Position numbers and translations under genes: made by a program
From: a virus
DNA: 64,000 nucleotides
Virus record (IMG/VR): IMGVR_UViG_3300019776_000461
Location: 1-64,000 of that record
Direction: 5' to 3' (one strand)
Shown: piece by piece, positions 2,843 to 62,960 of the stretch
Numbering within the stretch: position 1 is the first letter of the stretch
Layout of the letters: each line of letters opens with the position of its first letter
Notes under the pieces: generated by a model
What the model was told of the DNA's origin: nothing
The model's input: only the letters and a program-made list of their open reading frames with translations
Database searches by the model: none

Positions 2843-4135
2843 ATGACTAACAAAAATCAAACTTCGTTAAAATCAATTATGAATCAACTTTTATCTGAAA
2901 AGAAAATGGTTCGTACATTGGATAAAACTACAAATAAAGCAATTTCTTTGGATGAAACTGCAATAGATTCATTGCTAAATTCAGACATTTTTACTGTTAG
3001 AGAATCCAAAGCACTAAAGATATTGTTTGGTAAAACAAAAACAAATTCATTGAATGAAGTAACTATTAAACGATTGGATAAACAAGTAAAAATTATATCG
3101 GAATTAAAAGATGGACATATTAAATTATCCGAAGGATTTTTCGGTGATATGTGGAGTGGCTTAAAAAGTCTTGGAGATAAGGCGAAAGAAGCAGTTGTAG
3201 GTGGTTGGAACAAAATGAAAGCAATTTGGAGTGAATTCAAAGAGTTGGTTCAAGAAGTTATTAATTCTGCAAAAAATGGATTATTGAAATTGTGTAATAT
3301 CGGTGCTAATGTTGGAAATGCTGGTGCAGAAATTATGGGTAAAGTTAAAGACAAGAAATTAACTGCTGATCCAGATTTCGTAAAAGAATTAAAACAATTA
3401 GGTGAAACTGGCAATTGGTGGAAATCATCATGGTTTCAGAAATGGATAGTAAGTCCTTTTTGGGAAAAAGATGTATTAGCAGGAAACGGTACTGTTGATG
3501 AAGAACCTAAAGTTGACCCTAAAGCAGCAGAACAAGGGTTACAAGCAATACCTGCATTAGAAAGTTTAATTAGTAAAAGAAATAATCTTTTATCAGATTA
3601 TCAGGTGGTTAATGAATTATTAAATAGAAGTGAAAGAAAAGCAAATTTAAGAGAAGGTCACTCAGTTGAACACTTAGATGACGCAATTAAAAATCCAGCG
3701 TTAAAAAAAGTTGTTCATTATGCAATAGAGTTAATACAATGGGTGTTCATGCCATTTGCTAAATTGGGTCAAGTTATTGCAAAAGCAGCTGGTCCTAAGT
3801 TACTTGCTTCTTTTTCAAATGTAACAAAATCAGTTGGTGGTCCAGGTGCTTACACATTTGAGTTAGTTGGGACATTATTTGGTGAATTTGTGGAAATTTT
3901 TATAAAGAAAAAGATGGGAGAGGTGCAAGTTGAGATGGTTGCAAAAGTATTATTTCCTGGAATTGGTGTGGGAATTGATATTGTACATGGTATTCATACT
4001 GCACTATTCTGTTGGACTATTGCTAATATAGTTATAAACTTGGTTGATGTTGTAAACAAAGAAAAAACTGAATCTTATTCCCCAACTGTTGAATTTAAAA
4101 TGCAGAACGGTAACTTATTATTTATTAAAGAATAA
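2843..4135 (+). CDS. Putative internal head protein with cleavable propeptide
   Basis: The function is not recognised. The 430-aa protein shares its plan with the next gene: an N-terminal region of about 95 residues, then IKLSE-GFFGDMW (residues 93-103), an amphipathic Lys-rich helical region (about 100-155), a middle domain, a hydrophobic helix pair near the C-terminus and a matching tail (VEFKMQNGNLLFIKE). LSE followed by G fits the (L/I)xE-(A/G) site cut by the T4 prohead protease gp21, so the first 97 residues may be a capsid-targeting propeptide (inference). I chose the ATG at 2843 over an in-frame TTG at 2822 because it fits the upstream late box spacing. A membrane-active, injected protein is possible. 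Confidence 0.55.
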   Translation: MTNKNQTSLKSIMNQLLSEKKMVRTLDKTTNKAISLDETAIDSLLNSDIFTVRESKALKILFGKTKTNSLNEVTIKRLDKQVKIISELKDGHIKLSEGFFGDMWSGLKSLGDKAKEAVVGGWNKMKAIWSEFKELVQEVINSAKNGLLKLCNIGANVGNAGAEIMGKVKDKKLTADPDFVKELKQLGETGNWWKSSWFQKWIVSPFWEKDVLAGNGTVDEEPKVDPKAAEQGLQAIPALESLISKRNNLLSDYQVVNELLNRSERKANLREGHSVEHLDDAIKNPALKKVVHYAIELIQWVFMPFAKLGQVIAKAAGPKLLASFSNVTKSVGGPGAYTFELVGTLFGEFVEIFIKKKMGEVQVEMVAKVLFPGIGVGIDIVHGIHTALFCWTIANIVINLVDVVNKEKTESYSPTVEFKMQNGNLLFIKE

Positions 4136-6656: not shown

Positions 6657-7403
6657 ATGGACTTAAACCATAACGAAACAAACGACGCTAAAGAAGTTTT
6701 GTTAAATGAAGAAGTTGTAGGATTAGATAATTCTGGTATAAAGAAAGGAAGGAAAACAATAAAAAATAAAATCGGATTTCATCTATCCTTAAATGAAGAA
6801 CAAAAGTCCGTTAAATCAAACGCACTAGCAGACACAGTTTCCGTATTTTTAGGTAAGGCTGGTTCTGGAAAAACCCTATTGGCAACACAAATAGCATTGG
6901 AACATCTTTATTATAAAGAAGTAGATAAAATAATAATTACAAGACCTACTGTATCAAATGAAGATTTAGGATTCTTACCAGGAAATATAAAAGAAAAGAT
7001 GGACCCATGGTTATCTCCTATTCATGCTAATATGGCGATGTTATCTGGTAAAGAAAAAGTAGATAAATTAATACAAGAAGATAAAATTGAAATTGCTCCT
7101 ATAAGTTTTCTACGTGGTAGAACATTTGTAAAGTCATGCGTAATAGTAGATGAATGTCAGAACGTAACAAGAACACAATTAGAAATGATTCTTTCAAGAC
7201 TTGGTGTAAATTCTAAAATGATTCTTACAGGTGATGGTGCTCAAATTGATTTGAAAAACAAGAAAGATTCTGGATTACCATATTTATATAATATGAAAGA
7301 TAAAATCAATGGGTTGGGGGTTTATGAATTATTGACAAACCACCGTCATCCAATTGTTGATAGTATATTACAATATTTTGATGAAACAAAAACTGAGAAG
7401 TAA
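6657..7403 (+). CDS. phoH: PhoH-like ATPase
   Basis: This is a PhoH-family P-loop ATPase, common in T4-like marine phages; its phage role is unsettled (RNA metabolism and phosphate stress have both been suggested). The Walker A motif is GKAGSGKT at residues 66-73, ITRPTV and LGFLPGNIKEKMDPW are family signatures, and the Walker B region is VIVDECQN near 161-168. At 248 aa it is close to the core ATPase length, with a 45-residue N-terminal extension. It sits between head-associated and neck genes, which suggests late expression. The stop is immediately followed by the ATG of the next gene. Confidence 0.93.
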   Translation: MDLNHNETNDAKEVLLNEEVVGLDNSGIKKGRKTIKNKIGFHLSLNEEQKSVKSNALADTVSVFLGKAGSGKTLLATQIALEHLYYKEVDKIIITRPTVSNEDLGFLPGNIKEKMDPWLSPIHANMAMLSGKEKVDKLIQEDKIEIAPISFLRGRTFVKSCVIVDECQNVTRTQLEMILSRLGVNSKMILTGDGAQIDLKNKKDSGLPYLYNMKDKINGLGVYELLTNHRHPIVDSILQYFDETKTEK

Positions 7404-13148: not shown

Positions 13149-13637
13149 ATGGCTGAATTACTTGACCCCACGGAAATATTTTTTACCCCGTTTGAGCCAA
13201 AGTTACAAAACCGATTTATTTTGTACATTGAGGGTGTTCCTGCTTATTTAGTGAAAGGTGCTGGCAGACCTAACATCAGCTTTAACCCTATCACTCTCGA
13301 TCACATTAATATTAAACGTAAAGTAAAAGGTAAGGGCGAATGGCAAGATATTTCTATTAAATTATATGACCCTATTGTTCCTTCTGCTGCACAAGCAGTA
13401 ATGGAATGGGTTCGTTTATCACACGAATCTGTAACAGGCCGTGATGGTTACTCTGACTTCTACAAGAAAGATTTAACACTTCATGTACTTGGTCCAGTTG
13501 GTGATAAGATTGAAGAATGGACTATTAAAGGTGCATTTATCACCGCAACTACATTTGGTGATATGGATTGGGCAAACGATGCATTTGTTGAGATTTCTCT
13601 AACATTAGCATACGATTACGCTATCCTTCAATACTAA
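13149..13637 (+). CDS. 19: Tail tube protein, gp19
   Basis: This is the subunit of the inner tail tube. Its 162 aa match T4 gp19 (163). Typical features are LQNRFILYIEGVPAYLVKGA near the N-terminus, FNPITLDHINIKRKVKGKGEW, a central WVRLSHESVTGRDGY helix, and the closing strand WANDAFVEISLTLAYDYAIL. It has its own late-type box, with terminators on both sides, so it is probably transcribed as a single-gene unit, fitting the need for many copies. Confidence 0.95.
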   Translation: MAELLDPTEIFFTPFEPKLQNRFILYIEGVPAYLVKGAGRPNISFNPITLDHINIKRKVKGKGEWQDISIKLYDPIVPSAAQAVMEWVRLSHESVTGRDGYSDFYKKDLTLHVLGPVGDKIEEWTIKGAFITATTFGDMDWANDAFVEISLTLAYDYAILQY

Positions 13638-13663: not shown

Positions 13664-13709
13664 CCCCATATTTATTAATAGAAATATTAGTGAATATGGG
13701 GATTTTTTA
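13664..13709 (+). terminator. Terminator-like hairpin after the tube gene, overlapping a possible ORF start
   Basis: CCCCATATT and AATATGGGG pair across a 20-nt loop and are followed by ATTTTTT. The loop side contains a near-copy of the late box (ATATTTATT). The 3' arm contains the ATG at 13696 discussed for the FeoA-like frame. Confidence 0.75.
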
Positions 13710-13942
13710 TCAAACACTTTTGTAGTTTACATAAAGACTCCATTGCAACCATTGTATATTATGGAAGCAATACACCATTCATCCGACGTTTACAAGAACT
13801 CGGATTAATTGTTGGTACAACATTTACTGTTATTAGAAAAGCACCGTTTGGTGGACCAATTGAAATTCATTACGGTTATACAAGATTGGCAATTAGACCA
13901 GACCCAAAAGTAGATATTATTATGGTTGATGAAGAATGGTAG
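13696..13942 (+). pseudogene. FeoA-like small protein, frame broken at a T6 run near the start
   Basis: The only gene-like content between 13638 and 14011. In the frame ending at TAG 13940-13942 the translation includes LQELGLIVGTTFTVIRKAPF and GGPIEIHYGYTRLAIRP, a close match to the FeoA SH3-like domain (LGL-x-x-G-x-x-(V/F)-x-V-x-(R/K)-x-APxGxP...G-x-x-LA-(I/L)-R). No ATG, GTG or TTG opens this frame upstream of the domain. The ATG at 13696 reads MGIF and then goes out of frame in TTTTTT at 13703-13708; one T fewer (or a +1 slip) would give an intact protein of about 81 aa. It may be a real gene with a sequencing error, a frameshifted gene, or a decaying host-derived fragment. Confidence 0.6.
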
Positions 13943-13958: not shown

Positions 13959-13967
13959 ATATTTATA
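13959..13967 (+). promoter_or_regulatory. Late-type promoter box ATATTTATA
   Basis: Exact copy, ending 44 nt before the ATG at 14012. Confidence 0.65.
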
Positions 13968-14011: not shown

Positions 14012-14878
14012 ATGACTAAAATTCCAACCGGCTACGATGTTGGTCAACAAGAAATTACTTCTGATGCTGACATTAAAGCCCAATTACTATCTGAGCATAG
14101 AGTTTCAGATGTTAAACGTACAAACTTTCCAACTGAAATTATCCCTTTACCTTCAAAAGGTCTTATATATCCGTTAGGTCATCCACTTGAAAGTGGCGTG
14201 ATTGAAATGAAGTATATGACTGCGAGGGAAGAAGATATTTTAACATCACAGAACCTTATTAAACAAGGTGTTGTGTTAGACAAATTGTTTGAGTCTTTGA
14301 TTGTTACTCCTGTTAATTATAACGATTTATATATGGGTGACAAGAACGCAATTATGGTTGCAGCGAGAATATTGGGTTACGGTAAAGATTATCAAGTCGA
14401 AGTTGATGACCCATTCTCTCCTGGAACAAAACAAAAAGTAACAATAGATTTAACTCAAATTGAGCACAAGGAGGTCGATTACAGCTTATTTGAGAGGAGA
14501 GTAAACGAATTTGATTACGAACTACCTAATTCAAAACGAGTAGTAACATTTCGTTTAATGACTCACGCTTTGGAGAAAGACATCCAAGCAGAATTAAAAA
14601 CAATGAATAAGACATTAGTAAGAACTGGAATTGACAAGGAACTTACAACAAGACTCAAACATATTATTACTTCCGTAGACGGTGAAAGTGGTAGAGCAAC
14701 GGTAAATAATTTTGTGGATAACGAACTATTTGCAGCAGATTCACGTGCTTTAAGACAATATATTAAATCAATATCACCTGACCTTGATTTAACATACACT
14801 TTTATTTCAGATGCAACTGGTGAGGTGAAGGAGTTAGAAATACCTATGGGTGTTTCATTTTTTTGGCCTGGGAACTGA
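14012..14878 (+). CDS. 26: Baseplate hub / tape-measure chaperone candidate, gp26-like
   Basis: This 288-aa protein contains IPLPSKGLIYPLGHPLESG and MKYMTAREEDILTSQNLIKQ (about 45-95), which resemble the conserved core of the T4 gp26 (baseplate hub subunit) family, and it ends in SFFWPGN. It lies directly upstream of the tape-measure gene, the place where tail assembly chaperones are found in many phages, and overlaps a small downstream ORF in the +1 frame at a T7 run. It may act as a chaperone rather than as a virion part; T4 gp26 itself is needed only for hub assembly. Confidence 0.65.
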   Translation: MTKIPTGYDVGQQEITSDADIKAQLLSEHRVSDVKRTNFPTEIIPLPSKGLIYPLGHPLESGVIEMKYMTAREEDILTSQNLIKQGVVLDKLFESLIVTPVNYNDLYMGDKNAIMVAARILGYGKDYQVEVDDPFSPGTKQKVTIDLTQIEHKEVDYSLFERRVNEFDYELPNSKRVVTFRLMTHALEKDIQAELKTMNKTLVRTGIDKELTTRLKHIITSVDGESGRATVNNFVDNELFAADSRALRQYIKSISPDLDLTYTFISDATGEVKELEIPMGVSFFWPGN

Positions 14879-15087: not shown

Positions 15088-15121
15088 CAAAGTCCGTATA
15101 TTTATCTATACGGACTTTTTG
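15088..15121 (+). terminator. Terminator hairpin whose loop carries a late-box-like sequence
   Basis: AAGTCCGTATA and TATACGGACTT pair perfectly and are followed by TTTTG. The loop-side sequence ATATTTATC (15098-15106) is the late box with its last base changed and sits 33 nt before the ATG at 15139, the usual distance. One site may end one transcript and begin the next. Confidence 0.75.
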
Positions 15122-15138: not shown

Positions 15139-18100
15139 ATGATGGCTAAAGAAGACAAGAAAGAATCAGAAGAGTTACGTGACCTCCGCAGACAAGAAGC
15201 AGAAATCACGCGTGAAATTATTGACCTTAGAGAAAAACTCGTTGAATTATCTAAATCAGATAGTATCAATTTACGAGAGGTTCAGAAGGTTCAAGAAAGT
15301 CTATTGGGCTTAGAAAAGCAAAAGCAAGGAGTTCAGGGAGAGATATATAATCAATACGGTGAAATACTTAAAAGTGAACAAAATCATTTAGATAGTGTTA
15401 GACAAATAGTAGAGACACAAGAAGAGCTAAAAGATTTAACAGAAGAAACAAACGAGGAATATAGAAAATCTCGTGCTGTTAAAATGGAACTTCTTGATCT
15501 TGAAGATGAACTTAAAACAAAATATGATGATTTGCAAAAGGGCGTTGCTGGCAACATTGTAAATACAAAAGAATGGCAATTTGCATCTGATTTAGTGGCT
15601 CAAACAACAGCAGCAATAGAAGAACGTGTACATGGTTCAAGTAAAGAAATGATTGCGTTGGGTGATGCAACTCGTAAAAATCTTTATACTAATATTGATT
15701 TAGTTGATACGTTACAAGATATGGATGCTTCTTCAAAAGCAGTTCGTGAAGGTAAGTTTATTGAGTTGAGTGCTTACCGTGAAGAATTGGGATTGAAAAA
15801 AACAGGCAGAATGCTTGATATGTTAAGAGAAGATTTTGAGCGTGGTTCAATAAAAGATGCTCAAGGTAAAACTAAATATTCTCAACAAGATTTAGAATTC
15901 ATTCAAAAGCAAATTGGTATATATGAAAACCAACAAGATGCATTACAAACTATGGTTGATCTTAAACAAAAAGCAAATGTTGAAAATAAAGAAGAAGCAA
16001 AAAAGCAAGCTGAGATTATAGAAAGAACAGACAGAATAAAAGATACAATAGGGACAACTAAATTTGGAGCAATATTCGATGGTGTTGAGGGTGCAATAAA
16101 GAAAATACCTGGCGGCTCTACACTTGTTAAAGCACTCGGATTTGATAAATTTAAGAAGACTATACAAGAAAATCTTGGTGGTGCATTAACCAAAGTAGTT
16201 GTTGGGTTTCAAGGTGGATTTGCTAATGGTATGAAAGCGGCAGGGCAAGCTGTAATGGGACTTGGCAAAACATTATTGATGGGACCACAAGCAGTTATAT
16301 TCGGATTACTTGCAGCAGTAGGTGCTCTTGCAGCATTGTTTGTATCATTGGACGGTGGAGTATCTGAGGTTCAAAAAGAACTCGGTGGAACAAAAAAAGA
16401 AGCACTTGCAGCGCATGAAGCAGCACATGACATGGCTCATGAAATGGGACTTGTTGGTGTAAATACAGAACAAGTAGTTAAAGGGATGAAAACTGTATCG
16501 AATATCATGGGTGGTATTGATGTTAAGAAAATGATGAAAATTCCAAGTATGGCTAACACAGTTCAAGACGCAACTTTGTTAAGTGAAAAATTTGGATTAG
16601 CTGAGGATGAAATTGCAAATGTTCATTCTCTTTCGATAATGAGTGGTAAATCAATGGCAACTCTATCTGGCGAAGCAATTAAAGTTGCGGGTGGAGTTAT
16701 GAGTTCTAAGAATGCTGTTAAACTTCTTGCTGGTATTTCAAAAGAAGTCGCAGTAGCATTCAAAGGTACTACAAAAGAACTTATCGCTGCAGCAGCAAAA
16801 GCCAAATTGTTGGGTACAGACTTAAAGGCAATTCAAAATTCTGGCATGGGGATGTTAGATATTGAATCTTCACTTGCAAAAGAAATGGAAGCGAGGGTTC
16901 TTCTTGGTAGAAATATTAATTTAGATAATGCAAGAGCCGCAGCATTGAATGGTGATGTTGCAACGCTTCAAGAAGAAATTCTAAAAAATGCAGGTAGTCT
17001 TGACCAGTTTCAAAAGTCAGGTCCATTGAAACAAAAAGCACTTGCAGATGCAATGAATATGAGTGTTGAAGAAATGACTACTATGTTGACTAAAGCAGAG
17101 GAAATGAAGACACTTGGATTGGATAAACAACTACAAGAGAATTTAGCAAATGCAACTGCCGAAGAACGTTCTAAGATATATGCCACCCAAGCAGAAAAAT
17201 TAAAGAAACAAGGTAACGAAAAAGCAGCACAATTAGCTTATGAAAAAGCAGCACAGGAAGAACAAGCAAGTGCTGCAGAAAAGTTTGGTGATATTATGAC
17301 CAAAGTAAAAGAAATTCTCACTAAGTTGGCAACTCCTATACTCGAAATGGTTCATGGTTTACTTGAGGGTGCAAGTGCAGGTGGTGGTATGATGGAAGTG
17401 TTTGATGATGTAGTTCATTCTATAAAACCAATTGTAACTATACTTGTTGGTATTGTTAAAATAATTTTAGGTGGTTTGATTCCTGCATTCAAATTCACAT
17501 TTGGTATTATATCCATGCTCATTAAACCACTTTCATGGATTGCTTCATTATTTGGTAGTGTAGAAGAAAAAACAGACAAGGTTGAAAAAACTGTGAAGGG
17601 TGTAACCGATGGTGTACATAAAGTAACTAAACCAGTTAAAGAAGTAGAATCAGGATTTGGTGGTGTTCTAAAGTTGGTTGGATTAATAGGTGCAGCTTTT
17701 GCAGGTAAAGCATTGATTGGAAAAGGGTTAGACTTAGTTAAAGATAAAGCGGTGGATTTAGGTAAAACATTGATGGGTAAAGTTGGTGGTGTTGCAAGTA
17801 AAGTCACGGGAAAAATAGGCGGAAAGATGGGTGGATTTGCAGGAAAGGCATTGGGTAAACTCACAGGTAAAGGTGCAGCATCAGTAGCATCTGTTGGTGG
17901 TGGTGATGCCACAAGTAAAATGTTAGATACACAGTCTGCTTCTCTTGATAAAACAAATAAATTAGCAGACGGTGCTAAATCGGTTGGAAGTAAAATTGCA
18001 GACTTTGGTAAAGGATTAGGTAGTGCTATAAAATCAATCGGGAAAGGTGTTGGTGCTGCATTTGAAGCGATACTAAAAGGACTGGGTAAAGGATTAGAAG

Positions 18101-48364: not shown

Positions 48365-49870
48365 ATGTGCGGTATAATAGCAACCGTCGGTTATACTAAA
48401 ACTGACGTTGATAATATGTTGGAAACCATCGCTCACCGTGGTAAAGATAACCGTGGTATAAAAGAATTTTCTTGGGGCGATAGAAAAGTTATACTCGGAC
48501 ACAATCGCCTTGCTATTAACGATACTTCTGCTGCAGGAAATCAACCGATGGAATGGGAAGGTATTCACTTAGTAGTTAACGGTGAAATATGGAATTATCC
48601 CGAACTAAGAAAAGAATACGAAGAAAGAGGATATGAGTTCAAATCAAATTCAGATTCAGAACTTATACTGTTTGTGTACAAAGAACAAGAATTGAAAAGA
48701 CTTAACGGTATGTTTTCTTTTGTTATTTGGGATAACGGAAAGCTAATTCTTTCTCGTGATTGGGTTGGTAAGTTACCGCTCTATATTTTTAACAATAACA
48801 CTTACATTATTGCAAGTGAAATAAAATCTATTGTTGAACAATTACCCAATGCTGAAATTAAATTTGTACCGAAAAATTCTTTGATTGAAATAGATGTAAG
48901 TACAGATAAAATAACAGTTCATAAAGATTACTATTTTAACTTTTCAAATGAAACAACTTCACCTGAAACACATGAAGAATGCAGTATAACCACGTACAAT
49001 CTACTGGAGAACGCGGTAAGTAAAAGATTGTTATCTGATGTACCTATTGCAACTTCGTTGAGTGGTGGGATTGATTCCGCTGTTATAACGTATTTATTAT
49101 CTACTAAAATACCGAACTTAAAAGCATATACAATTGCTTTTGATGAAGATTCGCCTGACTTGAAGTACGCAAGAATAGTTGCAAAACATTTGGGTATTCA
49201 ATTAGTTGAAGTTTTAGTTCCAAGAAATGTAGAACTATTAAAACAAAGATTTTTGGAATCGATAAGAGTTATTGAATATCCATCTACCGTTCAAATGCAA
49301 GTTGGTATTCTACAATCGTTTATAGCAGAACAGATGGCAAAGGATGGAATAAAAGTTGCTTTTAGTGGTGAAGGTTCTGATGAAGCATACGGTTCTTATG
49401 GAATGATAAGAATGTTCAGTAAGAAACCAGACTGGTCGGATATTAGAAAGAAATTATTTGAAAAGCAATACTATGGTAATTTATTACGCGGTAATACTAT
49501 TTTCATGTATTATGGAACAATAGAATTACGTTGTCCGTTTTTCGATATTGATTTTCTAAATTACACTACTAACTTAACGAACGAATTTCTATCTGATAAA
49601 TCTCAATGGAAACTTCCACTTGCAGATGCATTCAGACCGTACTTGCCTAAAGAAGTTATTGAACAAGAGAAACGTGCTTTTCAAAAAGGTACAAACTTCA
49701 AAGGATATATTGAAGATATAATTCTAAATGATAAAGAAATAAACTTTCGTAATAGAAAAAAGATGCTTCATGTAATTGGTGATAACTTTGAAAAGATTCA
49801 TGGATTCTCACATAAGAAGATGAAGGGCGAACTTATTGGTAATAATGGTGGAATATTCAAATGGATTTAA
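48365..49870 (+). CDS. asnB: Glutamine-hydrolysing asparagine-synthetase-like amidotransferase
   Basis: This 501-aa protein has two domains. The N-terminal Ntn glutaminase begins MCGIIATVGY with Cys2 as nucleophile, and shows AHRGKDNRG, GHNRLAIND and LVVNGEIWNYPELR. The synthetase domain has the PP-loop SLSGGIDSAV near 230-240 and the SGEGSDEAYGSY signature near 338. E. coli AsnB has 554 aa, so this is slightly short. It could make asparagine, but the position between a TS-fold enzyme and a PLP-fold protein suggests that it may amidate a modified nucleotide or DNA base (inference). It overlaps the next gene by 10 nt. Confidence 0.85.
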   Translation: MCGIIATVGYTKTDVDNMLETIAHRGKDNRGIKEFSWGDRKVILGHNRLAINDTSAAGNQPMEWEGIHLVVNGEIWNYPELRKEYEERGYEFKSNSDSELILFVYKEQELKRLNGMFSFVIWDNGKLILSRDWVGKLPLYIFNNNTYIIASEIKSIVEQLPNAEIKFVPKNSLIEIDVSTDKITVHKDYYFNFSNETTSPETHEECSITTYNLLENAVSKRLLSDVPIATSLSGGIDSAVITYLLSTKIPNLKAYTIAFDEDSPDLKYARIVAKHLGIQLVEVLVPRNVELLKQRFLESIRVIEYPSTVQMQVGILQSFIAEQMAKDGIKVAFSGEGSDEAYGSYGMIRMFSKKPDWSDIRKKLFEKQYYGNLLRGNTIFMYYGTIELRCPFFDIDFLNYTTNLTNEFLSDKSQWKLPLADAFRPYLPKEVIEQEKRAFQKGTNFKGYIEDIILNDKEINFRNRKKMLHVIGDNFEKIHGFSHKKMKGELIGNNGGIFKWI

Positions 49871-51276: not shown

Positions 51277-51906
51277 ATGTCAAAATTAACTAATATATTA
51301 AAAGAAAGTGGTTTATCGAGATTGGTTTACCACATGGAAATGCACGATTGCGGTACAATTACAGCCTTCCGTTCTAAAGAAGGCTGTGGTTTACCTGAAG
51401 ATTTACCGTACGCTCTACAAGATAACAAAAAAAGAAATGCTCAATTAAAAGCAAAACTTGAAATGATGGGGTACGGAACAACCGCAGTTAAAGGTGCTTA
51501 TATTGAAAACTACGGAACACCTGAAGCAATTGAAGTACGTGAAGATGTTTTCTTTGTTGTGGATTTACAAGACAAAGGAAACCTTGAAGCAGATTTAAGA
51601 AGATTAGGTGAAGAGTATATGCAAGATTCTATTTTGTTTATACCAAGAGGTGGTAGAGGTTCTGTTCTCATCGGTACAAACCATTGTTCAGATTATCCAG
51701 GATATGGCAGAACAATGCAATTCAATGATAGACAAATGGGCAAAGGTGGTCAGTTCATGACAAAAGTAAATGGTAGACCTTTTATATTTGAATCTAATTT
51801 ACTTGAACAAGTTGGAAACCATAACTATTATAGTGTTGCAAACAACATGGGTAAGTGGGCAATGAAAACTATTGCAAATAAAGATTGGAAAGATATTGAA
51901 ATTTAA
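51277..51906 (+). CDS. DUF3293-like protein with capsid-targeting-like leader
   Basis: This 209-aa protein has the leader MSKLTNILKE, then GTITAFRSKEG, a helix NKKRNAQLKAKLEMMGYGTT, EVREDVFFVVDLQD, a second helix LEADLRRLGEEYMQDSILFI and GSVLIGTN. This order resembles bacterial DUF3293 proteins (ITA-F-R, N-x-x-L-x-x-x-L, E-x-SF-V, helix, strand). The function of that family is unknown to me. A late-type promoter sits upstream although neighbours are nucleotide genes, which fits a late-made, packaged protein. Confidence 0.55.
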   Translation: MSKLTNILKESGLSRLVYHMEMHDCGTITAFRSKEGCGLPEDLPYALQDNKKRNAQLKAKLEMMGYGTTAVKGAYIENYGTPEAIEVREDVFFVVDLQDKGNLEADLRRLGEEYMQDSILFIPRGGRGSVLIGTNHCSDYPGYGRTMQFNDRQMGKGGQFMTKVNGRPFIFESNLLEQVGNHNYYSVANNMGKWAMKTIANKDWKDIEI

Positions 51907-61431: not shown

Positions 61432-61803
61432 ATGGCTATTAAAGAAATAGATTTAGGGCGGAAACAAAATGGGGCTGTATCTGAAATTGAAGAGAAGTTT
61501 CCTAATATGACCAAGGAGTTCAAACGTATTCAACAAGAACAGTATGAACTCTTCTGTGCAAAGCAAAAGAACTATGGCCCAGATAATATTTCCATGGGAA
61601 GTAATCTCGAACGAGAAGACGATCGTAAACTTTCTTTGCAGGGTTTATTCTTTCGTATTAACGATAAGATAAACAGATACAAACAAATGATTATGTTTGG
61701 TTCACAAGACGCAGTTGGTGAATCTCTAAATGATACATTCAAAGATATTTCTGTTTATGGAATTATCGCACAACTTGTTCAATCTGGTAAATGGGGGAAA
61801 TAA
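61432..61803 (+). CDS. Nmad1 / DUF1599-like nucleotide-modification-associated protein
   Basis: This 123-aa protein contains LFCAKQKNYGPDNISMG, FFRINDKINRYKQMIMFGSQ and GESLNDTFKDISVYGIIAQL, which match the pattern of nucleotide modification associated domain 1 (K-x-x-(N/D)YG ... DK-x-x-R ... E-x-x-x-D-x-x-x-Y). Families so named are often found in phages with modified DNA bases. ATG 61432 follows GAGG; an ATG at 61420 overlapping the previous stop is the alternative. Its stop overlaps the metK start by one base. Confidence 0.65.
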   Translation: MAIKEIDLGRKQNGAVSEIEEKFPNMTKEFKRIQQEQYELFCAKQKNYGPDNISMGSNLEREDDRKLSLQGLFFRINDKINRYKQMIMFGSQDAVGESLNDTFKDISVYGIIAQLVQSGKWGK

Positions 61804-62960
61804 TGAGTATATATATTTGGACTTCGGAATATGTAAGTGAAGGTCATCCTGATAAAATAGCTGACCAAATTTCAGATGCAGTTCTTGATTGGTACTTACA
61901 AAGAGACCCAGATGCAAAGGTTGCGTGTGAGGTTATGGTAAAGGATAGTGATATTTATGTTTCTGGTGAAATAAAATCAACGGTTGATAAAGATAAAAGA
62001 ACTTTAGAATTATCACTAACTCGATTAATTAGAGGACTTATAAAAGATATTGGATACACAAAAGAAGAATCCCCTTTCTTTAATTCAGACTATTGCCGTA
62101 TTCATTTCAATATATCAACTCAATCATCAGAGATTAATCAAGCAGTTGATAAAGGAGATGTTGTTACAGCAGGAGACCAAGGTATTATGTTTGGTTATGC
62201 AACTCGTGAAACTCCAACGTATATGCCGGTAGCAATTTACTTAGCTAAAAAACTAATTGAAGTTGCAACGGATATTAGAAAGAAAGGTAGTAAACTTGGA
62301 CATGTACAAAAACTTCGTCCTGATATGAAGAGTCAGGTGTCTGTTGCGTATAGTGGTAATGAAGCAGTTGGTATTCATTCTGTTGTATTTTCAACTTGTC
62401 ATTCTGAGTTGATTTCACTTGAAGAACTTAGAAAGTATTTCCACTCTGATATTTTACCAAAGGTATTAGAAAGTATTCCAGAAGAACTTGCTAAACTGTT
62501 TACAGATAAAACTGTTTACCATATAAATCCTGCTGGTGAATGGAACATAGGTGGTCCAGTTTCTGATTGTGGATTAACTGGTAGAAAGATTGTGGTTGAC
62601 CAATATGGTGCTGATTGTGAAATTGGTGGCGGTGCTTTCTCAGGCAAAGACCCAAGTAAAGTTGATAGAAGTGCAGCATATATGGCTCGTCATATTGCCT
62701 TAAAAACACTTCATGAAAATGAAGAAGCAAATAAAATTAAAGTTCAATTAGCATATGTAATCGGTGAAGAGTTTCCTGTTTCATATCGTATATTTGACCC
62801 AACAACTGGAAAAGAATATGGACTTGGTAAATTTAGTTTCAATGATTTAACCCCAAATAAAATCATTGAAAGATTAAAATTAAAAACTCCTATTTATTTA
62901 CAGACTGCTAAGTACGGTCATTTTGGAAATAAAGATTTAGAATGGGAGAAAATTGGATGA
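61803..62960 (+). CDS. metK: S-adenosylmethionine synthetase
   Basis: This 385-aa enzyme makes SAM from methionine and ATP. Diagnostic segments are SEYVSEGHPDKIADQISDAV (about 7-26), GDQGIMFGYATRETPTYMP (about 118-136) and CEIGGGAFSGKDPSKVDRS (about 275-293). Length equals bacterial MetK (about 383). A viral SAM synthetase is unusual; three SAM-using methyltransferases are encoded nearby, which gives it a plausible use. It overlaps the next gene by 4 nt. Confidence 0.95.
   Translation: MSIYIWTSEYVSEGHPDKIADQISDAVLDWYLQRDPDAKVACEVMVKDSDIYVSGEIKSTVDKDKRTLELSLTRLIRGLIKDIGYTKEESPFFNSDYCRIHFNISTQSSEINQAVDKGDVVTAGDQGIMFGYATRETPTYMPVAIYLAKKLIEVATDIRKKGSKLGHVQKLRPDMKSQVSVAYSGNEAVGIHSVVFSTCHSELISLEELRKYFHSDILPKVLESIPEELAKLFTDKTVYHINPAGEWNIGGPVSDCGLTGRKIVVDQYGADCEIGGGAFSGKDPSKVDRSAAYMARHIALKTLHENEEANKIKVQLAYVIGEEFPVSYRIFDPTTGKEYGLGKFSFNDLTPNKIIERLKLKTPIYLQTAKYGHFGNKDLEWEKIG

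What the first reader, a model, noticed from the sequence alone, without database searches (positions are those of the whole stretch)
13696..13942. FeoA-like gene broken by one base at a T6 run between the tube and hub-chaperone genes
A clear FeoA-type SH3 domain is coded, but its frame has no usual start codon. ATG 13696 would give an intact protein of about 81 aa if TTTTTT (13703-13708) had five T. The same T-run is the tail of a terminator hairpin. A FeoA-like protein in a phage tail module is unexpected and could relate to iron, or be a borrowed structural fold.
Basis: partly seen in the sequence, partly recalled or inferred. Interest (0 to 1): 0.6.

Follow-up and report, generated by a model that had tools for sequence, protein, structure and literature searches.

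The report
Phage FeoA gene lacking usual start
A small iron-uptake protein gene (FeoA) sits as an optional extra among a phage's tail genes; it has no normal start codon in any of nine related viruses, yet mutations in it are mostly silent, so it is probably still made by an unusual route and is not a sequencing error or a dead gene.

Summary
A FeoA domain (PF04023, 52 bits) lies in frame 13694-13942 without ATG, GTG or TTG. The hairpin, the T6 run and the missing start are the same in all eight other IMG/VR records that carry the gene (six distinct coding sequences), so T6 is not a sequencing error. Changes among them are mostly silent (13 of 24, 6.1 expected, P = 0.002), so the protein has been under selection while lacking a usual start.

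FeoA is an optional cargo gene. Relatives with a 94-95% identical tube have an empty slot, and others carry endonuclease, RmlB-like or ferritin genes there. Its leader is homologous to the leaders of endonuclease cassettes in the same slot: a terminator hairpin with an embedded promoter motif, the SD-like GGGG in the 3' arm, then the T-run and the start codon. This is the anatomy of T4 homing-endonuclease leaders. In sister cassettes AUG follows the T-run; here AUC (13709) stands there, 7 nt after GGGG.

My best reading is late, low-level translation from AUC. Slippage or +1 frameshifting from ATG 13696 is not excluded. FeoA is unlikely to be a virion part. FeoA and ferritin both occupying this tail slot is the most interesting lead.

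The parts
13149..13637 (+). tail tube gene (gp19-like), upstream border of the cargo slot
   Evidence: PF06841 E 1.5e-6 and PHROG 4542 E 7.7e-27
13664..13701 (+). 17-pair hairpin: terminator-like stem that also pairs the GGGG in front of FeoA
   Evidence: fold -22 kcal/mol, z -6.4; terminator scan; 93.5% of cells paired and 4 pairs with changes on both sides across FeoA, endonuclease and RmlB leaders, 0 of 500 shuffles reach the covariation score
13668..13675 (+). ATATTTAT, putative phage (late-type) promoter motif inside the 5' arm
   Evidence: motif 20 on + strand and 1 on - in the window; 11 lie 26-55 nt before a start, mean 0.8 for the other 55 A3T5 8-mers. Reads ATACTTAT in six of the nine records
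13698..13701 (+). GGGG, Shine-Dalgarno-like, in the 3' arm of the hairpin
   Evidence: -5.5 kcal/mol with anti-SD, stronger than 64% of 45 phage starts; 7 nt before ATC 13709
13703..13708 (+). T6 run: terminator tail
   Evidence: T6 in all nine FeoA records
13709..13711 (+). ATC, proposed start codon, at the place where sister cassettes have ATG
   Evidence: invariant in nine records; directly after the T-run, as ATG is in L047 and L049; only conserved near-cognate codon before the domain
13709..13942 (+). FeoA coding region (77 aa from ATC)
   Evidence: PF04023 52 bits; PDB FeoA 3mhx E 3.5e-6; 13 of 24 changes silent, P 0.0019
13696..13725 (+). short ATG frame (MGIFYQTLL) that would join FeoA only through loss of one U or a +1 shift
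   Evidence: no conserved SD
13959..13966 (+). ATATTTAT promoter motif of the downstream hub gene
   Evidence: 53 nt before ATG 14012; CCCATATTTAT is also present in empty slots
14012..14878 (+). T4 baseplate/hub gene (hub chaperone type), downstream border of the slot
   Evidence: PF12322 E 8.6e-8, PHROG 150 E 1.3e-11

Best explanation
This is a selected, optional FeoA cargo gene in a swap slot between the tail tube and hub genes of a T4-related phage group, expressed through a leader of the homing-endonuclease type. Shown by sequence: the slot, the shared hairpin leader, the conservation and the silent-change excess. Inferred: (1) transcripts coming from the tube gene form the hairpin, which ends most of them and hides the GGGG Shine-Dalgarno; (2) the promoter inside the 5' arm starts shorter late transcripts that lack the 5' arm, so GGGG is free; (3) ribosomes start, weakly, at AUC 13709, 7 nt further on, giving a 77-aa FeoA; (4) this protein acts late in infection on the host's FeoB ferrous-iron importer (function inferred from the FeoA family only).
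For: FeoA domain; PDB relatives. Same leader, T6 and ATC in nine records. Purifying selection: pN/pS 0.20 (tube 0.09), 13 silent of 24 changes against 6.1 expected, P 0.0019, no stop in any record. Empty slot in relatives with 94-95% identical tube. Homologous hairpin leaders in front of endonuclease (14 loci) and RmlB-like (3 loci) genes, with 14 endonuclease loci and one RmlB locus shown to follow the same tube gene. AUG follows the T-run in those cassettes, directly in L047 and L049. Promoter motif to ATC 41 nt, mode of the phage 41-46. SD. Solved FeoA chains begin opposite residues 4-8 of this frame and ATC is residue 6. T4 endonuclease leaders work in this way: PMC2988022.
Against: AUC is a very weak start codon in known bacteria (own knowledge). 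No record has ATG there, so the gain from a stronger start was not taken or not wanted. The promoter motif is ATACTTAT in six of nine records. In the predicted late transcript GGGG can pair with CUCC inside FeoA (-12.7 kcal/mol, z -1.1). All nine records are close relatives (94-98% protein identity), so the selection test rests on 24 changes. No transcription start, ribosome or peptide data exist here.
Confidence: 0.5

Rival explanations
1. FeoA is made from ATG 13696 by recoding. Either RNA polymerase drops one U at the hairpin-plus-T6 site (stem-loop-dependent slippage), or the ribosome shifts +1 at UUU_U behind the GGGG, giving an 81-aa MGIFIKHF... protein.
For: ATG, hairpin and T6 are conserved in all nine records. 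Precedents in PMC5009743: a Roseiflexus IS630 transposase needs a transcript that lacks one base next to a nascent stem-loop, and UUU_U behind an internal SD is used by a few release-factor-2 genes. GGGG AUU UUU U resembles the RF2 layout.
Against: ATG 13696 has no conserved SD (-2.3, -0.9 and +0.4 kcal/mol in three haplotypes). It is fixed by the stem and reads ATA in sister leaders. No sister cassette starts before the T-run. Transcripts started at the embedded promoter would lack the hairpin that would drive slippage. UAU follows the shift codon, not a stop.
Confidence: 0.22
2. The gene is a recent pseudogene that lost its start in the common ancestor of the nine records and is now drifting.
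For: No usual start codon in any record; the C-terminal end is altered by a small deletion in L008.
Against: The loss predates the split of all nine records, yet since then 13 of 24 changes are silent against 6.1 expected (P 0.0019) and the frame has no stop or internal frameshift. Other frames of the same DNA gain stops.
Confidence: 0.18
3. FeoA is an SH3-like fold borrowed as a tail structural part.
For: It sits between tube and hub genes in the late module.
Against: Absent in close relatives with an otherwise intact tail module; the slot holds unrelated cargo in others; it keeps the FeoA family signature.
Confidence: 0.05
4. Sequencing or assembly error in the T-run.
For: Homopolymer at the critical place.
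Against: T6 in nine contigs from several separate metagenome datasets.
Confidence: 0.01

Closest known systems
FeoA (PF04023), cytosolic partner of the FeoB ferrous-iron importer
   Same: Domain over its core (Pfam 6-64 of 74), PDB relatives 3mhx and 2k5f, usual length near 75-77 aa
   Different: Phage-borne, no feoB beside it, no usual start codon, late tail module
T4-type homing-endonuclease leaders (I-TevI, I-TevII, I-TevIII, segB, Aeh1 mobE)
   Same: Hairpin that hides the Shine-Dalgarno, with a late promoter so placed that late transcripts cannot form it (PMC2988022)
   Different: Here the hairpin is also the terminator of the tube gene, the cargo is FeoA, the start is AUC, and the promoter motif is ATATTTAT, not TATAAATA
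DUF559/MTES_1575 zinc-finger endonuclease cassettes in the same slot (L091, L101, L049)
   Same: Same insertion place and homologous hairpin leader
   Different: Start with ATG after the T-run; encode a nuclease-like protein
Stem-loop-dependent transcriptional slippage (Roseiflexus IS630)
   Same: Hairpin directly before a slippery run; loss of one base would join the frames
   Different: T6 only, no C run; the upstream ATG lies inside the stem
Phage morons / auxiliary metabolic genes
   Same: Optional gene with its own promoter and terminator signals
   Different: One shared element serves as terminator, promoter, and ribosome site; GC (34%) matches the phage

Membership tests
FeoA (PF04023) | Score above the curated Pfam cut-off over the domain core | tested here: met
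   52 bits against 23; also over cut-off in six relatives
FeoA (PF04023) | Relative with solved FeoA structure | tested here: met
   3mhx E 3.5e-6, 2k5f E 2.3e-5
FeoA (PF04023) | SH3-like fold in a model | tested here: inconclusive
   AlphaFold with six near-identical rows gave pLDDT 40
FeoA (PF04023) | Promotes Fe(II) uptake through FeoB | not testable with these tools
   needs complementation
FeoA (PF04023) | Complete gene with a usual start codon | tested here: not met
   no ATG, GTG or TTG in frame before the domain in nine records
T4 homing-endonuclease-type leader | Stable hairpin pairing the ribosome site | tested here: met
   GGGG 13698-13701 in the stem; -22 kcal/mol, z -6.4; covariation
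T4 homing-endonuclease-type leader | Late promoter placed so that late RNA lacks the 5' arm | tested here: inconclusive
   motif ATATTTAT in the 5' arm with strong positional support, but no RNA 5' ends, and ATACTTAT in six of nine records
T4 homing-endonuclease-type leader | Leader found in front of endonuclease genes | tested here: met
   14 homologous endonuclease cassettes after the same tube gene
Programmed transcriptional slippage | RNA of altered run length | not testable with these tools
   no RNA data
Phage moron / cargo gene | Present in some, absent in closely related genomes at one site | tested here: met
   tube-hub gap 378 nt with FeoA; 122-131 nt without it in relatives L010-L019

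The most novel reading that the evidence does not exclude
The tube-hub slot repeatedly collects iron-handling genes (FeoA in one lineage, ferritin in six records of other lineages) because the phage manages iron while it builds tails, for example to load tail proteins with iron. FeoA is then deliberately kept at a low, late level by an AUC start or a hairpin-driven frame change.
Probability: 0.13. Interest if true: 0.8.

Novelty: new variant of a known kind. Interest (0 to 1): 0.5.

Why it matters
A gene that evolves under protein-level constraint without any usual start codon is a clean test case for non-AUG starts or recoding in phages. It also shows a homing-endonuclease type of control element in front of a metabolic gene, and marks a tail-gene slot where unrelated cargo, including two iron-handling proteins, is swapped. 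That gives a concrete handle on the open question of whether phages manage iron for tail assembly (the 'Ferrojan horse' idea; a ferritin was reported in Vi01-like phages, in a suggested operon with a tail completion gene, PMC10892097).

Tried and rejected
Sequencing error: T6 in nine records. ATA 13694 as start: reads GTA in L001-L003. Later in-frame ATT codons: inside the first strand of the domain, no SD. Read-through from the tube gene: several stops in the FeoA frame between. Antisense RNA or a known RNA family: Rfam gave one sub-threshold miRNA match, taken as chance. FeoA hits in the phage collection (Enterococcus and gut 'phage' records, 27-41% identity, unannotated): likely bacterial DNA, not used. 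Structure model: pLDDT 40, not used, and its fold search was not collected. Genome scan for the bacterial source: only a 46% match over 39 residues in a Bacteroidales MAG, so the donor is unknown. The Tenacibaculum phage paper mentions feoA of the bacterium only. A search of the phage for an endonuclease copy that could have donated the leader found none in the FeoA phages. The FeoA leader sequence itself occurs only in front of FeoA.

Full report
OBSERVATION. The window is part of an 84.7-kb virus record. Between a gp19-like tail tube gene (13149-13637) and a T4 baseplate/hub gene (14012-14878) one frame, open from 13694 to the stop at 13940-13942, encodes a FeoA domain (PF04023, 52 bits). 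It has no ATG, GTG or TTG before the domain. A 17-pair hairpin (13664-13701, -22 kcal/mol, z -6.4) is followed by T6 (13703-13708), and ATG 13696 is one base out of frame.

NOT AN ERROR. Eight other IMG/VR contigs encode the protein at 94-98% identity (the profile scan and a leader scan returned the same eight contigs). All have the same hairpin, T6 and missing start. Six distinct coding sequences exist among the nine records.

NOT OBVIOUSLY DEAD. Among the six sequences pN/pS is 0.20 (tube gene 0.09). Of 24 single-base changes 13 are silent; random placement with the same base spectrum gives 6.1 on average, and 0.2% of simulations reach 13. There is no stop and no internal frameshift. Since all records lack a usual start, this constraint acted after the start was already missing. 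The sample is small and all records are close relatives.

AN OPTIONAL CARGO GENE. Eighty relatives of the tube gene were fetched. The nearest ones (94-95% identical tube) have an empty slot of 122-131 nt against 378 nt here. FeoA occurs in none of the other 44 records searched whole with the Pfam model. Other relatives carry other genes in the slot: zinc-finger DUF559/MTES_1575 endonuclease-like genes (14 loci, all directly after the tube gene), RmlB-like dehydratase genes (three loci), small unknown genes, and ferritin.

THE LEADER. Hairpins in front of the endonuclease and RmlB genes are homologous to the one in front of FeoA. The helix holds across them (93.5% of cells paired, 4 pairs changed on both sides, no shuffle reaches the covariation score; slid versions pair in at most 47%). 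Inside the 5' arm lies ATATTTAT, a motif found 20 times on the + strand and once on the - strand of the window, placed 26-55 nt before starts 11 times (mean 0.8 for the other 55 words of the same composition). I take it as the phage's promoter motif, by inference. In the survey of 80 loci the simple hairpin scan found embedded motifs only in L025, L031, L040, L041, L047 and L049; those examined (L025, L047, L049 and the decayed L031) hold endonuclease or RmlB cassettes, while empty slots have the motif outside a plain terminator. T4 homing-endonuclease genes are controlled by just such hairpins: long transcripts hide the ribosome site, while late transcripts starting inside cannot form the hairpin (PMC2988022).

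WHERE TRANSLATION STARTS. In sister cassettes the ATG follows the T-run: directly in L047 and L049, 3-8 nt later in others. In the FeoA leader the triplet directly after the T-run is ATC (13709), 41 nt after the promoter motif (the common distance is 41-46 nt) and 7 nt after GGGG, which pairs with the anti-SD better than 64% of 45 phage starts. ATG 13696 has a poor and unconserved ribosome site and lies inside the stem, where sister leaders read ATA. Solved FeoA proteins begin opposite residues 4-8 of this frame; ATC is residue 6 (derived). I therefore favour weak initiation at AUC. Loss of one U at a stem-loop-plus-run site has a precedent (Roseiflexus IS630) and +1 shifting at UUU_U behind an internal SD occurs in a few release-factor-2 genes (PMC5009743), so recoding from ATG 13696 remains open.

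FUNCTION. FeoA family membership is by sequence only; the action on host FeoB is inference. The tail-structure idea is unlikely, because close relatives do without the gene. A ferritin gene (PF00210, 57-69 bits) stands in the same slot in six records of other lineages, with its start 8-21 nt after the last tube codon in three of them; 57 further viral ferritin loci show no tube, hub or sheath relative nearby. Iron handling in this slot is thus recurrent, but the evidence for a link to tail assembly is circumstantial. A phage ferritin in a suggested operon with a tail completion gene was reported for Vi01-like phages, where tests with FeoB- and TonB-deficient hosts showed no clear effect (PMC10892097).

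VERDICT. The finding is real and more than chance; the one-base-break reading is replaced by a conserved cargo gene with an endonuclease-type leader and a non-AUG (AUC) start as the leading, unproven mechanism.

Noticed in passing
L146, L147, L148, L149, L151, L154 (ferritin 3001-3516 in most): Ferritin genes lie in the same tube-hub slot of other phage lineages, in three records 8-21 nt after the tube gene.
   Followed up: partly
L091, L101, L047, L049 and 11 further loci: Zinc-finger DUF559/MTES_1575 endonuclease-like cassettes repeatedly occupy this slot behind a terminator hairpin with an embedded promoter motif.
   Followed up: partly
L090, L097, L107: RmlB-like sugar dehydratase gene behind a homologous hairpin leader; L097 is shown to follow the same tail tube gene.
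   Followed up: no
15089-15118: Second hairpin in the window with ATATTTAT inside it, just before the tape-measure gene at 15139.
   Followed up: no
window, 13 sites such as 10569, 13108, 27483, 51235: ATATTTAT appears to be a strand-specific phage promoter motif, unlike T4's TATAAATA.
   Followed up: partly
L031 near 2620: Endonuclease-type leader followed by a very short, seemingly decayed reading frame.
   Followed up: no
48365-49867, 51277-51903, 61791-62957: Asparagine synthase-like, S-adenosylmethionine lyase and S-adenosylmethionine synthetase genes in the same phage.
   Followed up: no
7280: A promoter motif lies inside the gene 6657-7403.
   Followed up: no
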